A stretch of 64,000 bases of DNA from Anaerolineales bacterium. GTDB taxonomy: Bacteria; Chloroflexota; Anaerolineae; Anaerolineales; UBA4823. Positions 37,976-44,225 of this stretch are shown in pieces. The notes beneath the pieces were generated by a model. That model was not told where the DNA came from. It did not search any database and was given only the letters and a program-made list of their open reading frames with translations. Made by a program: the position numbers and the translations under genes. The stretch lies in NCBI GenBank assembly GCA_020060465.1, contig JAGVAD010000030.1, positions 1 through 64,000 on the forward strand. The letters run 5' to 3'. Every line of letters starts with the position of its first letter. Position 1 is the stretch's first letter.

Positions 37976-40264
37976 TCAACCAGGTGGTTGACCTGGCGCA
38001 TACTGCCGCTCAAGACCTCCTCGCCGGCCCGTCACGATTTTCAATGTTGGAAGTGTGAGTTCGTTAGGAACCAGGGGTTGCAGTACAGTTTGAACGGCGC
38101 GCATCAGTAATTCGATATAGCGTCGTATGTTCACGCTTTTCACTTCGGGCGGATTTGGCAAATCCCAGGCATAGACTCCCGGATGTCCCAGTGTGTAAAG
38201 GAAAGACACTGTTTGCCCAGGCCGGGTGGTTTTACCGACCTTTGCCAGTTGCGCCGCTGCAATCGCCGCATAAGACGGGCAACGATATTCTTCCAGTTCT
38301 CGGCTCAGTTTTTGCCTGACCAGCAGCGCCTCCAGCGGCACGCGCCAGTTGCGCAGATTGTCAATCTGCCTACGCACATAATCCATCACCTGCGGCAGGT
38401 AATTGGGTAGCTGCTCTACCTCCGGCGCTTGCGCCAGGATTTCGAGGATGCGCATTTGGGTTTCAGCAATGTGAAGGGGAGTATCTTGACGGCGCGCCTC
38501 AATGCCGCGGGCTTTGATCGTTCCATCCTGATAGACGCCAAAATAGCGATTGGCAACCGAAGCGCGTTCGTCCACCCGCGATGGCAGAAAGACAATCCAG
38601 CGATAAATTCCCTCCAAACCGACCGGCAAATGGGTGCGTCTGGCGATCTCATCCAGGATAGGCTGGAAGTCGCGCACGGATGTGCAGCCCGGCTTTTGCG
38701 CCCACAAACCGTCCACATATAGATGCAAAACATTGCCCCCCGCGTCTTCGATGGCTTCCTTTGCCCTCAGCAGACATTCGCGGCTGTAAGCGGTCACTGC
38801 CTGGTGCGCCTCGATGCGTCCAAAGCGAGCATTCTTGTAACCCAAATATCCGAAGCAGGTCACCAATAGCCATTTATGCGCCGCAGAGCGCGCTTTGTAT
38901 ATTTTACGCCGCGGATCCCAATGAGGTAATTCGGCGATCTTGCTCTTCAAGAGAATGCGTTTCTCCAACAATGGTTTCAAGGTGAGGGGGATCAGGCCGG
39001 GCGTTTGTTGACAAATCCATAAGTTCAACTCAGGCGTCTTTTCCGCCTGCGGTATATCTTGCCCCACTGTCTCCGGCGAGATGTTGAAACGCGCCATGAT
39101 GCTGGGATACATAGAGATGAAGTCAATCTCAGCCACGTCGCGATGTAAGCCGATGGAAGGCTGATAGACCAACCCGCCTTGATCGGCGTGTAGAAAATCC
39201 AGGGCGGTTTTGGGCATCTCGGCCTGTTGTTTGTGCCAGGGAACCAGCACGCCTTGGCGTAGGGCAGTGACGATCTGCATGGCGGAAATTCCACTGCCAG
39301 GCGAGAGCCGCGCTGCATCTTGCATGGGCATCGCGGATACCCGCGCCGACTCGAAGACGCCCTCCAGACCGTAATCATGAAACATCATGGCGTTATACAT
39401 ATCAATGTGCCAGCGACCGTAGAGCTGCACCTGCTCGCCCCGATAAACGATTTGACCGTAGGTGAAATACGAACGTTCCGTCTTGCGCAACGCCTCACAG
39501 TTTACCTCTCGGTTGAGCGGTAGAGGCAGGTTGAGTTCATCCGACCATTTCAACAGGCGCGGCAGCAACCAGGTATCGCCCCAGGCGGTGAGCAGCAGAT
39601 CGGGATCATAGCGCTTGAGGAGGCTCGCCAGATTGATCAACAACGGGCGCCGCGCCCTGAGTTCCAGGCTACAGTGGTAACGCTGAAAGCGAACATCCAG
39701 TCGTTGCGGCTCTGCATGACGCGGGTCGCAATCGGGCTCCAGGCTCATGACGCGCAACGGAGGAGGCTGTGTATCCACATCCCAGGGAGAGTCGAGCGTC
39801 TGGATGTGTCGTATCTTGTTGCGCTCATCGTATTCCACCCTGAGGCGCGCCAGCGGAAAGCTCCCATGCGCAGCCGCGTGTCGCAAAGGTAAGGCAATGT
39901 CTGCATCATAGTAGGTCAGGTCAGGATATTTTCGGCTGACGCAGGCAAATAAGCGCGGCTGATCAACGGGGTTGAGCGTTTGAACTGCCAATACGGGGAT
40001 GGGGTTGGGTTGGAACAAATCGCGTCGCTCCTGACGCGAGAGTCGAATGGGAACATCCTGCTCTTGAAGGAACTTCCATAGAGAGCGCAGTTGCATTGCG
40101 GGGCCAGCGACGTAAAAGGTTACGGGGAAATCCTGCGTCAGTCGGCGACGGTCGCCTTCGCATTGCGCCTCACCAGTCGCCCCTTGGTCTACCAATAGCC
40201 AGAGCGCCAGGCCGTCTCGCGGGTGACCATAAACATCCAACAGCCAACCGGTTACTTCAGCCAT
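37976..40264 (-). CDS. Family B DNA polymerase of PolB2-like type with altered motif C
   Basis: 762 residues. Polymerase motif A is intact (IDFISMYPSIM, Asp381); motif B region reads KARSAAHKWLLVTCFGYLGYKNARFG, close to Kx3NSxYG. Motif C reads LHLYVDGLWAQ (Asp518): the second acidic residue of the usual DTD, a metal ligand in family B, is replaced by Leu520. The exonuclease domain is also degenerate: the ExoI DxE position reads SLEPDCD, while ExoII (WGDTWLLP) and ExoIII-like (HIDMY) segments remain. The KARGIEARRQDTP thumb motif is family-typical. It is last of a three-gene operon with a small helical protein and a RecA-like protein, the arrangement described for archaeal PolB2 (Dpo2). It may be a damage-tolerance polymerase or non-catalytic factor. 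Confidence 0.85.
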   Translation of the reverse strand: MAEVTGWLLDVYGHPRDGLALWLLVDQGATGEAQCEGDRRRLTQDFPVTFYVAGPAMQLRSLWKFLQEQDVPIRLSRQERRDLFQPNPIPVLAVQTLNPVDQPRLFACVSRKYPDLTYYDADIALPLRHAAAHGSFPLARLRVEYDERNKIRHIQTLDSPWDVDTQPPPLRVMSLEPDCDPRHAEPQRLDVRFQRYHCSLELRARRPLLINLASLLKRYDPDLLLTAWGDTWLLPRLLKWSDELNLPLPLNREVNCEALRKTERSYFTYGQIVYRGEQVQLYGRWHIDMYNAMMFHDYGLEGVFESARVSAMPMQDAARLSPGSGISAMQIVTALRQGVLVPWHKQQAEMPKTALDFLHADQGGLVYQPSIGLHRDVAEIDFISMYPSIMARFNISPETVGQDIPQAEKTPELNLWICQQTPGLIPLTLKPLLEKRILLKSKIAELPHWDPRRKIYKARSAAHKWLLVTCFGYLGYKNARFGRIEAHQAVTAYSRECLLRAKEAIEDAGGNVLHLYVDGLWAQKPGCTSVRDFQPILDEIARRTHLPVGLEGIYRWIVFLPSRVDERASVANRYFGVYQDGTIKARGIEARRQDTPLHIAETQMRILEILAQAPEVEQLPNYLPQVMDYVRRQIDNLRNWRVPLEALLVRQKLSRELEEYRCPSYAAIAAAQLAKVGKTTRPGQTVSFLYTLGHPGVYAWDLPNPPEVKSVNIRRYIELLMRAVQTVLQPLVPNELTLPTLKIVTGRRGGLERQYAPGQPPG

Positions 40265-40514
40265 CGCGTCTCTGCTCGAGCAATTGCCGCAGCCGCATCA
40301 CCTCTTTATGTTCTTCCAGCAACATGGCCAGCAAGAATACCTCGAAGGGCAAGGCATGCGAGGCATAGGCGGCCGCGGCCAGATGTTGCCGTGCGGCGGC
40401 GAACAGATCGTCCAACGCCAGTTGATCGCTGCGCCGCAGGGCGCGCCGGAAACGGGCAAAGGCTTCTTGCTCCTGGAGAAAGACCTGTGTAATGGAGGGA
40501 ACTGTACGACCCAT
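40257..40514 (-). CDS. Small helical protein of the PolB2-like cassette
   Basis: 85 residues, all-helical, beginning MGRTVPSITQVFLQEQEAFARFRRALRR and ending LEEHKEVMRLRQLLEQRRDG. ATG 40514 is chosen, 8 bp past the stop of the RecA-like gene, with an AGG element upstream; a longer in-frame extension overlaps that gene. Its 3' end overlaps the polymerase start by 8 bp. No known domain is recognised. In the archaeal PolB2 operons a small uncharacterised protein occupies the same position, so an adaptor between the RecA-like and polymerase subunits is plausible. Confidence 0.75.
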   Translation of the reverse strand: MGRTVPSITQVFLQEQEAFARFRRALRRSDQLALDDLFAAARQHLAAAAYASHALPFEVFLLAMLLEEHKEVMRLRQLLEQRRDG

Positions 40515-40521
40515 CTTGAAC

Positions 40522-41058
40522 CTATAGCAATCTGAGTTGCGCCGACGCGGGCGGCGCAACTGCCTCGAAACGCCAGATATGATCGGCGCAGCCTTGTAAT
40601 TTGCTCATTAATGGCTCTATGTCTTTGGCCTTGTGCAACGCAGCGCTGACCACCACCGGCACAGAACGGCTTGTTTGGTACAGCCGTTCCAGACAGCGCT
40701 CCAGCAGGCGCAATCGTTCGCCCAGCGGCGCGGTTTCGTCGCAGAAAGTCGCCGGTAAATCCAACACCATGATAGGGACGCCAGACGCCGTGATTGGTTC
40801 AATCTGTGCAGCGACCTGGTAGTAAGTGAAGGCACGGGCGACATGGATGTTGTTCAAGCATGTTCCCAGGTGAGGTGACTGCCGCTGTGCCAGGCGCGCA
40901 ATACGATACACGTCGAAGAGGTTTCCGGCATCTAGTACCTGCACCGCGCCGGCAAGCGCCAGGCGAGCAATGAGGGCATTCATCAACGCGCTTACTGCCG
41001 GGCGCGAAGCAATTACCAGGTGCAACTGAGGGGAATTCAGACGAGATAGTGTGTTCAT
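40522..41058 (-). CDS. RecA/RadA-superfamily protein lacking Walker A
   Basis: 178 residues. The core resembles RecA-like ATPases: VQVLDAGNLFDVYRIARLAQR, the RadA/KaiC-type HVARAFTYYQV block, a Walker-B-like PIMVLDLPATF and VPVVVSAALHKAKD. The N-terminal P-loop position reads LVIASRPAVSALMN and lacks the GxxxxGK pattern, so ATP binding is unlikely. Length is below that of active RecA. The start is ATG 41058; a TTG two codons earlier is possible. It is first in the operon with the small protein and the polymerase, recalling ImuA-ImuB-DnaE2 mutasomes and archaeal PolB2-RadA-paralogue operons. A 6-bp inverted repeat lies just upstream. Confidence 0.72.
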   Translation of the reverse strand: MNTLSRLNSPQLHLVIASRPAVSALMNALIARLALAGAVQVLDAGNLFDVYRIARLAQRQSPHLGTCLNNIHVARAFTYYQVAAQIEPITASGVPIMVLDLPATFCDETAPLGERLRLLERCLERLYQTSRSVPVVVSAALHKAKDIEPLMSKLQGCADHIWRFEAVAPPASAQLRLL

Positions 41059-41174: not shown

Positions 41175-41591
41175 TCAGCGTTTGGATTCGAACCAAGAAG
41201 TGAAGTCAAAGCCAGATAGCATGGCTTTCACATCGCTGCGGTTCTGGCTGTTGAACTTAACCAGGATGTTATGCACATGCGCCTTAACCGTTGAGAGTGA
41301 AATGCTGAGTAATTGGGCAATTTCAGCGTTCGAGTAATTCAGGCAGATCAATGCAGCCACCTCCTGTTCGCGCCGAGTCAGGCTTTGCCAACAGCGATAA
41401 GAAGCTTCATTGACTGCCAACTGATCAAGGGCAATTGCTAGCAGATCATCCGCCACGTCTGCCACAGGGCGTTGTTCCTGATAAGCCAGTCCCTCGATCG
41501 TCTCTAAAAACATCCGTCTGACGGGAATGGCTTTGCCTGGGCGATAAAAACCGAGGCGGCGCAGGAGTCGTTTGAACACGGCAATTAACAT
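41175..41591 (-). CDS. LuxR-type (GerE) helix-turn-helix regulator
   Basis: 138 residues. The C-terminal half is a GerE DNA-binding domain: LTRREQEVAALICLNYSNAEIAQLLSISLSTVKAHVHNILVKF, with conserved Glu, Val and Lys-Ala-His positions. The N-terminal 65 residues are helical and contain no receiver or PAS domain. It ends about 115 bp upstream of the RecA-like gene on the same strand, so it may be a regulator of that cassette or an independent unit. A 16-bp palindrome lies 29 bp upstream of its start. Confidence 0.85.
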   Translation of the reverse strand: MLIAVFKRLLRRLGFYRPGKAIPVRRMFLETIEGLAYQEQRPVADVADDLLAIALDQLAVNEASYRCWQSLTRREQEVAALICLNYSNAEIAQLLSISLSTVKAHVHNILVKFNSQNRSDVKAMLSGFDFTSWFESKR

Positions 41592-41619
41592 CTTCGGCGA
41601 TTTATTGTTAGATCGTTTG

Positions 41620-41635
41620 TTCTATTATAATAGAA
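41620..41635. promoter_or_regulatory. 16-bp perfect palindrome upstream of the LuxR-type gene
   Basis: TTCTATTATAATAGAA is fully symmetric and contains a TATAAT -10 on both strands. It is a likely promoter or autoregulatory operator. Confidence 0.45.
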
Positions 41636-43295: not shown

Positions 43296-44225
43296 ATGGA
43301 CAAAAAATTCAAACTCTGGCAGGCATTTTTACTCGGTGGATGTGGAATATTTACTACATGTCTGGTGTGTACAGCTTCCGCCTTGATGTTTTCGCTTTTG
43401 GTCTTTATACCCACATCAGCCCCAACCCAAAGTGAGCAAATAAGCTCTTTACCTGGTAACACTCCAATTATTGTTTCGTCCCCCTCACCAACCCCATCAT
43501 TAACGTATACCCCTATTCCGTCGCCAACAATAACTCATACAAGCATCCCAACAAATACTCCGACAAATGTCCCAACAGCAACTCAATTCGCCTTTCAACG
43601 CCTTGGAGTATTAAGTTGCATTCCCGCTAACACGCAATTTGATAATGCCCTTGTCGTGCATGTTGTTGATGGCGACACAATTGATGTTGAAATAGACCAT
43701 ATTCGCTATCCGGTCCGATACATTGGTATTGATACGCCGGAGATTGCATTCACCGAGGAGCCATTCGGCTCAGAGGCATCCATCATGAACTCATCCCTGG
43801 TCGGCGGAAAAGTGGTTACTTTAGTAAAAGACGTCAGCGAGGTTGATAAGTACGGTCGTCTGCTTCGCTACGTGATCGTTGATGATCTTTTCGTAAACTA
43901 TGAAATGGTGAGGCGCGGTTATGCCTCTGCTGTTACTTATCCACCTGATGTTTCCTGTGCTGAAACATTTAGACAAGCTGAGCAACAGGCACGAAACGAG
44001 CACCTAGGTCTATGGGCGATTTCTGTACCTACTACAATTCCTACTCTCACGCCCCGTGTTGCTCCACCACCCTCTAATTGCGATCCAGCATACCCGGATG
44101 TATGCATCGCCTCGCCCCCTCCCGATCTGGACTGCAAGGATATTCCTTACCGGCGTTTCCGCGTTTTACCGCCTGACCCTCATAACTTCGACGGCGATCA
44201 TGATGGGATTGGATGCGAAAGTTAG
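43296..44225 (+). CDS. Surface or secreted thermonuclease-like (SNase) protein with excalibur tail
   Basis: 309 residues. An N-terminal hydrophobic segment (about 10-38) acts as signal or anchor, followed by a Ser/Thr/Pro-rich linker. The SNase domain spans about 118-245: VVHVVDGDTIDVEIDHIRYPVRYIGIDTPE, a KDVSEVDKYGRLLRYVIVDDLFVN block with the catalytic Arg-type residues and the GYASAVTYPP end. The C-terminus is an excalibur-type calcium-binding motif (NFDGDHDGIGCE). It probably degrades extracellular nucleic acids. The gene follows the broken restriction fragment by 15 bp. Confidence 0.88.
   Translation: MDKKFKLWQAFLLGGCGIFTTCLVCTASALMFSLLVFIPTSAPTQSEQISSLPGNTPIIVSSPSPTPSLTYTPIPSPTITHTSIPTNTPTNVPTATQFAFQRLGVLSCIPANTQFDNALVVHVVDGDTIDVEIDHIRYPVRYIGIDTPEIAFTEEPFGSEASIMNSSLVGGKVVTLVKDVSEVDKYGRLLRYVIVDDLFVNYEMVRRGYASAVTYPPDVSCAETFRQAEQQARNEHLGLWAISVPTTIPTLTPRVAPPPSNCDPAYPDVCIASPPPDLDCKDIPYRRFRVLPPDPHNFDGDHDGIGCES

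What the first reader, a model, noticed from the sequence alone, without database searches (positions are those of the whole stretch)
37976..41058. PolB2-like cassette: RecA-like protein without Walker A, small helical protein and family-B polymerase in a bacterium
Three overlapping genes are transcribed together. The polymerase has degenerate exonuclease and motif C, the RecA-like protein has lost its P-loop, and the small helical protein lies between. The same arrangement is described for archaeal PolB2 (Dpo2) operons that are damage-inducible, and it parallels bacterial ImuA-ImuB-DnaE2 mutasomes. It may be an unrecognised bacterial mutasome or a lateral acquisition from archaea.
Basis: partly seen in the sequence, partly recalled or inferred. 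Interest (0 to 1): 0.8.

Follow-up and report, generated by a model that had tools for sequence, protein, structure and literature searches.

The report
SOS-controlled PolB2 mutasome in Anaerolineae bacterium
This stretch encodes a known type of error-prone DNA-copying machine (PolB2 with its partners iRadA and PPB2) that bacteria acquired from archaea; in this group of bacteria it appears to be switched on by the SOS DNA-damage system, and it usually comes with a small extra regulator gene that I did not find described.

Summary
The three genes at 37976-41058 (minus strand) are iRadA (RadA fold, P-loop lost), PPB2 (small helical protein, true start ATG 40514, diagnostic MGRT N-terminus) and PolB2 (B-family polymerase; first Asp of motif C lost, exonuclease decayed). 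Profile searches, a phylogeny and gene order place them in the PolB2 mutasome family. Bacterial members are already published (Makarova 2014; Timinskas 2025), in exactly this order, so 'unrecognised bacterial mutasome' is wrong; 'PolB2-like, mutasome-like, archaeal affinity' is right. The window lies in a Chloroflexota/Anaerolineae genome bin.

Two things I did not find in those papers' main text. (1) In Anaerolineae the operon sits behind a box, AGAACANNTGTTCT (50/55 leader regions with at most 2 mismatches, about 3% of background stretches). The same core lies upstream of lexA in 25/30 relatives, so the operon most likely belongs to the LexA/SOS regulon. (2) A small LuxR-type HTH gene (window 41175-41591) leads the operon in 51/80 loci; other copies of that gene also follow the box.

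The bin (83% complete) and two congeners lack any detectable Y-family polymerase. The mechanism (translesion extension after damage) is inferred; I found no experiment on a bacterial PolB2.

The parts
37976..40264 (-). polB2: B-family DNA polymerase of the PolB2 group, 762 aa
   Evidence: PF00136 E 3e-25; NF004416 377 bits against 153 or less for PolB1/Pol II models; tree with haloarchaeal PolB2, 100/98
39098..39124 (-). polymerase motif A, DFISMYPSI (catalytic Asp intact)
   Evidence: alignment with PolB3; D381 invariant in 20 sequences
38711..38719 (-). motif C, YVD: first Asp of the canonical DTD replaced, second kept
   Evidence: YVD or FVD in 68 of the 71 scored named loci
40257..40514 (-). 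ppb2 (arCOG07300): small helical partner, 85 aa, start ATG 40514
   Evidence: alignment A3; the A3 profile finds haloarchaeal PPB2 at E 4e-18 to 8e-21
40503..40514 (-). MGRT N-terminal arm of PPB2, predicted by Timinskas 2025 to insert between PolB2, iRadA and DNA
   Evidence: direct reading; MGRT in 62 of 73 PPB2 ORFs
40522..41058 (-). iRadA: RadA/Rad51-fold protein without P-loop, 178 aa
   Evidence: A2 profile against PDB RadA, E 7.6e-9; AlphaFold model pLDDT 91.5, RadA/Rad51 fold E 1.5e-8; no Walker A
40525..40539 (-). QLRLL at the iRadA C-terminus, a probable beta-clamp-binding motif
   Evidence: motif class in 48 of 82 distinct iRadA C-termini against 2.4% in shuffles, and in 2 of 97 PolB2 C-termini
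41175..41591 (-). leader gene: small LuxR-type (GerE HTH) protein with a helical N-terminal half, 138 aa
   Evidence: PF00196 E 1.4e-13; directly upstream of iRadA in 51 of 80 named loci; AlphaFold pLDDT 86.9, HTH matches VpsT/VraR/LiaR
41610..41623 (-). LexA (SOS)-type box AGAACAAACGATCT, 18 bp before the LuxR-type ATG; 2 mismatches to AGAACANNTGTTCT (right half degenerate)
   Evidence: the same core precedes lexA in 25 of 30 relatives
41624..41629 (-). TATAAT, putative -10 hexamer abutting the box (no good -35 hexamer; a consensus scan did not report a promoter here)
   Evidence: direct reading; not reported by the scan

Best explanation
The locus is a bacterial PolB2 translesion-synthesis mutasome operon, with the arrangement [LexA-type box] - luxR-like - iRadA - ppb2 - polB2. 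Proposed mechanism: DNA damage makes RecA trigger LexA self-cleavage; the box is freed and the operon is transcribed. A PPB2 trimer and iRadA assemble on PolB2, with iRadA docking as a RadA protomer would and the MGRT arm of PPB2 reaching towards the active site. The iRadA tail (QLRLL) tethers the complex to the beta clamp. PolB2, lacking proofreading, then extends mismatched or lesion-containing primer ends, giving tolerance at the cost of mutations. The LuxR-like leader protein, made from the same promoter, probably acts as a second-tier regulator of this or other SOS genes. Shown here by sequence: family identity of all three parts, fold of iRadA, gene order and co-occurrence, clamp motif, conserved box. 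Taken from published work on archaea and published models: polymerase activity, extender role, complex architecture. Inferred: LexA binding, induction, the LuxR role.
For: PolB2 placed with haloarchaeal PolB2 apart from PolB3/Pol II, 100/98; PPB2 and iRadA profiles find the neighbours of haloarchaeal PolB2 (E 1e-10 to 8e-21); RadA fold without P-loop; all three genes adjacent in 71 of 80 named Anaerolineae loci; box in 50/55 leader regions against 3.4% background, in front of all 12 further luxR-like copies fetched, and its core before lexA in 25/30 relatives and before the own lexA. Sulfolobus work on PolB2/Dpo2 induction and targeted mutagenesis as cited in PMC11791011.
Against: No experiment on any bacterial PolB2 was found. 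The window's own box has a degenerate right half (GATC for GTTC), so repression here may be weak. Only iRadA, ppb2 and polB2 lie within about 10 bp of each other; luxR-like to iRadA is about 110 bp, so a separate iRadA promoter is possible. The LuxR-like gene is absent from some PolB2 operons and exists elsewhere without them, so it is not a core part.
Confidence: 0.87

Rival explanations
1. The box is the operator of the LuxR-like protein itself (an autoregulated LuxR circuit unrelated to SOS) and not a LexA site.
For: All 12 further copies of the luxR-like gene that were fetched, next to PolB2 or not, have the box upstream, as does the second copy in the own genome (C49).
Against: The GAAC-N4-GTTC core sits upstream of lexA in 25/30 relatives and of the own lexA. 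PolB2 operons without the luxR-like gene keep a box before iRadA in 5 of 12 cases. From general knowledge the core equals the Gram-positive LexA box, and LuxR-type HTH sites look different.
Confidence: 0.12
2. A decayed, non-functional archaeal relic: PolB2 and iRadA lost catalytic residues and the cassette is drifting.
For: Degenerate motif C and exonuclease; lost P-loop; one truncated copy in G017 (458-aa frame).
Against: 83 invariant columns across 20 polymerases at 41-65% identity to the window's; MGRT and the second Asp of motif C conserved; the same substitutions occur in archaeal PolB2, which is reported active; promoter box conserved.
Confidence: 0.03
3. A replicative or proofreading B-family polymerase (PolB3/PolB1/Pol II type) with coincidental neighbours.
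For: Best PDB sequence hits are PolB3 enzymes; no PolB2 structure is among them.
Against: Tree, NCBIfam scores, missing ExoI DxE and missing ExoIII segment (alignments), co-occurrence of partners.
Confidence: 0.01

Closest known systems
Bacterial PolB2 mutasome (group G2 PolB + PPB2 + iRadA), Timinskas et al. 2025, PMC11791011; Makarova et al. 2014, PMC4104785 (e.g. Leptospirillum ferriphilum LFML04_0990-0993)
   Same: All three proteins, gene order iRadA-PPB2-PolB2, first Asp of motif C lost, exonuclease dead, MGRT arm, P-loop lost, clamp motif usually in iRadA and rarely in PolB2
   Different: Here a LexA-type box plus a LuxR-like leader gene, instead of an adjacent lexA; neither is mentioned in the main text of the 2025 paper (its supplement could not be read)
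Archaeal PolB2/Dpo2 operon (Sulfolobus Dpo2; haloarchaeal plasmid copies)
   Same: Homologous parts; haloarchaeal copies have the same order; motif C IVD in haloarchaea, IID in S. islandicus
   Different: Archaeal loci are enriched in orc1/cdc6 neighbours; only about 30% polymerase identity
ImuA-ImuB-DnaE2 and UmuD'2C-RecA (Pol V) mutasomes
   Same: Architecture by analogy: polymerase + RecA-like subunit + small subunit, SOS-controlled
   Different: C- or Y-family polymerases; no shared polymerase ancestry

Membership tests
PolB2 mutasome | Polymerase belongs to the PolB2 clade and not to PolB1/PolB3/Pol II | tested here: met
   (100/98); scores
PolB2 mutasome | First Asp of the motif C DxD replaced, motif A Asp kept | tested here: met
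   YVD
PolB2 mutasome | Inactive exonuclease domain | tested here: met
   No DxE at the ExoI region; about 50 residues holding ExoIII missing relative to Deep Vent polymerase (query 305/306 aligns to 281 and then 332)
PolB2 mutasome | PPB2 with conserved MGRT N-terminus | tested here: met
PolB2 mutasome | iRadA: RadA fold, no Walker A, no N-terminal domain | tested here: met
   178 aa
PolB2 mutasome | Bacterial order iRadA-PPB2-PolB2 on one strand | tested here: met
PolB2 mutasome | Clamp-binding motif in iRadA or PolB2, rarely both | tested here: met
   QLRLL at the iRadA end; 48/82 iRadA against 2/97 PolB2
PolB2 mutasome | D(K/R) loop motif contacting the PPB2 arm | tested here: inconclusive
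   Asp361 invariant in 20 polymerases, but followed by Q here (K, R, M, H or A in others); equivalence to S. islandicus 253-DK is my inference
PolB2 mutasome | Heteropentamer PolB2:iRadA:3xPPB2; translesion polymerase activity; damage induction | not testable with these tools
   Only a LexA-type box was found; no complex modelling was available
ImuA-ImuB-DnaE2 mutasome | C-family DnaE2 and Y-family-like ImuB encoded together | tested here: not met
   The polymerase is B-family; no Y-family domain found in the own genome bin (83% complete)
LexA (SOS) regulon of Anaerolineae | Operator shared with the lexA promoter, positioned at the operon's promoter | tested here: met
   the window's copy has 2 mismatches; binding itself not testable here

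The most novel reading that the evidence does not exclude
In Anaerolineae the PolB2 mutasome is a four-gene SOS operon whose leader gene encodes a dedicated small LuxR-type regulator, always behind a LexA box, that forms a second regulatory tier for damage-induced mutagenesis; in some genomes, such as this genus, the PolB2 mutasome is the only specialised translesion polymerase.
Probability: 0.4. Interest if true: 0.6.

Novelty: new member of a known kind. Interest (0 to 1): 0.42.

Why it matters
Bacterial PolB2 mutasomes have been predicted but, as far as I found, never tested. This locus ties them to the SOS response through a promoter element and not only through lexA adjacency, extends them across Anaerolineae, and names a regulator gene to test. 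The operon is also present in the named isolates Leptolinea tardivitalis YMTK-2 and Longilinea arvoryzae KOME-1, so induction and mutagenesis can be measured in cultures and not only in metagenome bins.

Tried and rejected
Single-sequence searches of the RecA-like protein were too weak (Rad51 E 0.013; PDB RadA E 0.92); a profile was needed. Y-family polymerases were tested as mutually exclusive with PolB2: 15 of 25 PolB2 genomes and 8 of 16 others have one, so no exclusion overall. A sigma-70 promoter/terminator consensus scan gave nothing above shuffles. A search for a published Chloroflexi LexA motif found none usable. A one-origin test of bacterial PolB2 was not possible: the forks between haloarchaeal, phage and Anaerolineae groups are open. 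The fold search of the LuxR-like protein matched mainly its HTH domain, so the N-terminal half stays unassigned (weak ribbon-helix-helix hint in 2 of 9 members).

Full report
Observation. The window is a stretch of a 3.18 Mb genome bin, 83% complete. On the minus strand, in the order of transcription, lie a LuxR-type HTH gene (41591-41175), iRadA (41058-40522), PPB2 (40514-40257) and PolB2 (40264-37976). The small protein's start is ATG 40514 and not the mechanical TTG, because this gives the MGRT start conserved in relatives.

Polymerase. Pfam PF00136 E 3e-25; the best curated models are NF004416 and NF004418 (377 and 298 bits), far above PolB1 and Pol II models. Both scores are below those models' own cut-offs, as expected of a distant relative. 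Motif A is DFISMYPSI. Motif C is YVD where PolB3 has DTD, so the first catalytic Asp is lost and the second kept; every Anaerolineae, haloarchaeal and Leptospira-phage sequence in the tree also lacks the first Asp. The exonuclease is decayed: in the alignment to Deep Vent polymerase the query skips about 50 residues that hold ExoIII, and no DxE is present in the ExoI region. A maximum-likelihood tree of the polymerase core joins the window, 19 relatives, 5 haloarchaeal PolB2 and 2 Leptospira-phage polymerases against PolB3 and Pol II with 100/98 support. Branching inside that clade is open, so this tree cannot show the number of archaea-to-bacteria transfers. The published larger tree argues for one (PMC11791011).

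Partners. A profile of 16 iRadA orthologues finds RadA in the PDB at E 7.6e-9. The AlphaFold model (pLDDT 91.5) matches RadA/Rad51 structures with E down to 1.5e-8 and TM-scores of about 0.6-0.76. No Walker A motif occurs in any of the 16. The PPB2 profile finds the small gene beside haloarchaeal PolB2 at E 8e-21 to 4e-18, and the iRadA profile finds the third gene there at about 1e-10. Haloarchaeal plasmid copies have the same order. In 80 named Anaerolineae loci, 71 hold iRadA, PPB2 and PolB2 together; most of the others are cut by contig ends. Some of these 80 are the same assemblies as the unnamed relatives. One exception: in G015 the PolB2 stands alone, and a luxR-iRadA-PPB2 trio lies elsewhere on the same chromosome.

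Clamp motif. The window's iRadA ends in QLRLL. The class Q[LPMFS]x[LF][FLWI] occurs in 48 of 82 distinct iRadA C-termini against 2.4% for shuffled tails, and in 2 of 97 PolB2 C-termini. This agrees with the published finding that bacterial clamp motifs sit more often in iRadA.

Regulation, the new part. 51 of 80 loci have the LuxR-like gene directly upstream of iRadA. Upstream of it lies AGAACANNTGTTCT: 17, 39 and 50 of 55 distinct leader regions at 0, 1 and 2 mismatches, against 0.7, 1.7 and 3.4% of random stretches of the same loci. The window's copy is AGAACAAACGATCT (41610-41623, 2 mismatches). The core GAAC-N4-GTTC is found within 260 nt upstream of lexA in 25 of 30 relatives, against 7.8% of random stretches (four of the five exceptions lie on short or cut stretches for which my fixed offset may be wrong). 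The own lexA has CGAACGAATGTTCT 59 bp before its start, and a perfect box lies upstream of the gene ahead of recA and recX. PolB2 operons that lack the LuxR-like gene keep a box before iRadA in 5 of 12 cases. All 12 further copies of the LuxR-like gene that were fetched, linked or not to iRadA, also carry the box. The simplest reading is that both the operon and this LuxR-like family belong to the LexA regulon; an autoregulatory LuxR site is the rival. That GAAC-N4-GTTC is the Gram-positive LexA core is from general knowledge.

Genome context. No Y-family polymerase domain was found in the window's genome or in two congeners (83-89% complete), nor in three other PolB2 genomes that are at least 96% complete. 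Across 41 genomes the two kinds are not mutually exclusive. Incomplete bins and untested DnaE2 limit the claim that PolB2 is the only translesion enzyme here.

What is known. Makarova et al. 2014 described the three linked genes in archaea and several bacteria, some with lexA. Timinskas et al. 2025 described bacterial and archaeal PolB2 mutasomes, named the parts, modelled the heteropentamer and listed lexA, SRAP and DUF72 genes as neighbours. A 2026 survey counts them as group G2. The main text of the 2025 paper does not mention LuxR, Chloroflexi or an SOS box; its supplement could not be read. The finding is therefore a new member of a known kind, with a regulatory layer that appears undescribed.

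Noticed in passing
L178 1698-4954 and L182 1707-4759 (Leptospira phages KF114879, KF114878): Leptospira phages/prophages carry a complete iRadA-PPB2-PolB2 cassette. The annotated PPB2 CDS are truncated at the 5' end; the reading frames begin with MGRT at 2230 (L178) and 2236 (L182). A phage-borne mutasome hints at a transfer vehicle.
   Followed up: partly
L056 6715-10903 (congener G002, Chloroflexi RBG_16_57_11): PolB2 (1053-aa frame against 762) and iRadA carry several in-frame insertions made of small palindromic repeats (GTAGGGGCGGGTCTG.../...CAGACCCGCCCCTAC and others), with no stop in the PolB2 or iRadA frame. This resembles protein-coding palindromic elements; such repeats also occur elsewhere on the contig.
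   Followed up: partly
own genome C44:68851-69543 (L175): The only RecA hit in the bin scores modestly (162.7 bits over positions 31-261 of PF00154), although it has a P-loop and lies before a recX-like and an RNase Y-like gene; a perfect LexA-type box lies upstream of the preceding aminotransferase-like gene.
   Followed up: no
own genome C60:17808-17821 (L159): A perfect LexA-type box 23 bp before an uncharacterised 293-aa protein, possibly a further SOS gene.
   Followed up: no
L034 / G015 C1:4050846 and C1:186639-188026: In a one-contig genome PolB2 is separated from a luxR-iRadA-PPB2 trio, a natural split of the operon.
   Followed up: partly
G005 C5:187202-189403 and C4:56715-58844: One genome holds two complete PolB2 operons, one with and one without the LuxR-like leader.
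   Followed up: no
window 43296-44225: ORF with a proline/threonine-rich N-terminal part and a region that reads like a thermonuclease/SNase and excalibur-type domain; seen only in the ORF list, not searched.
   Followed up: no
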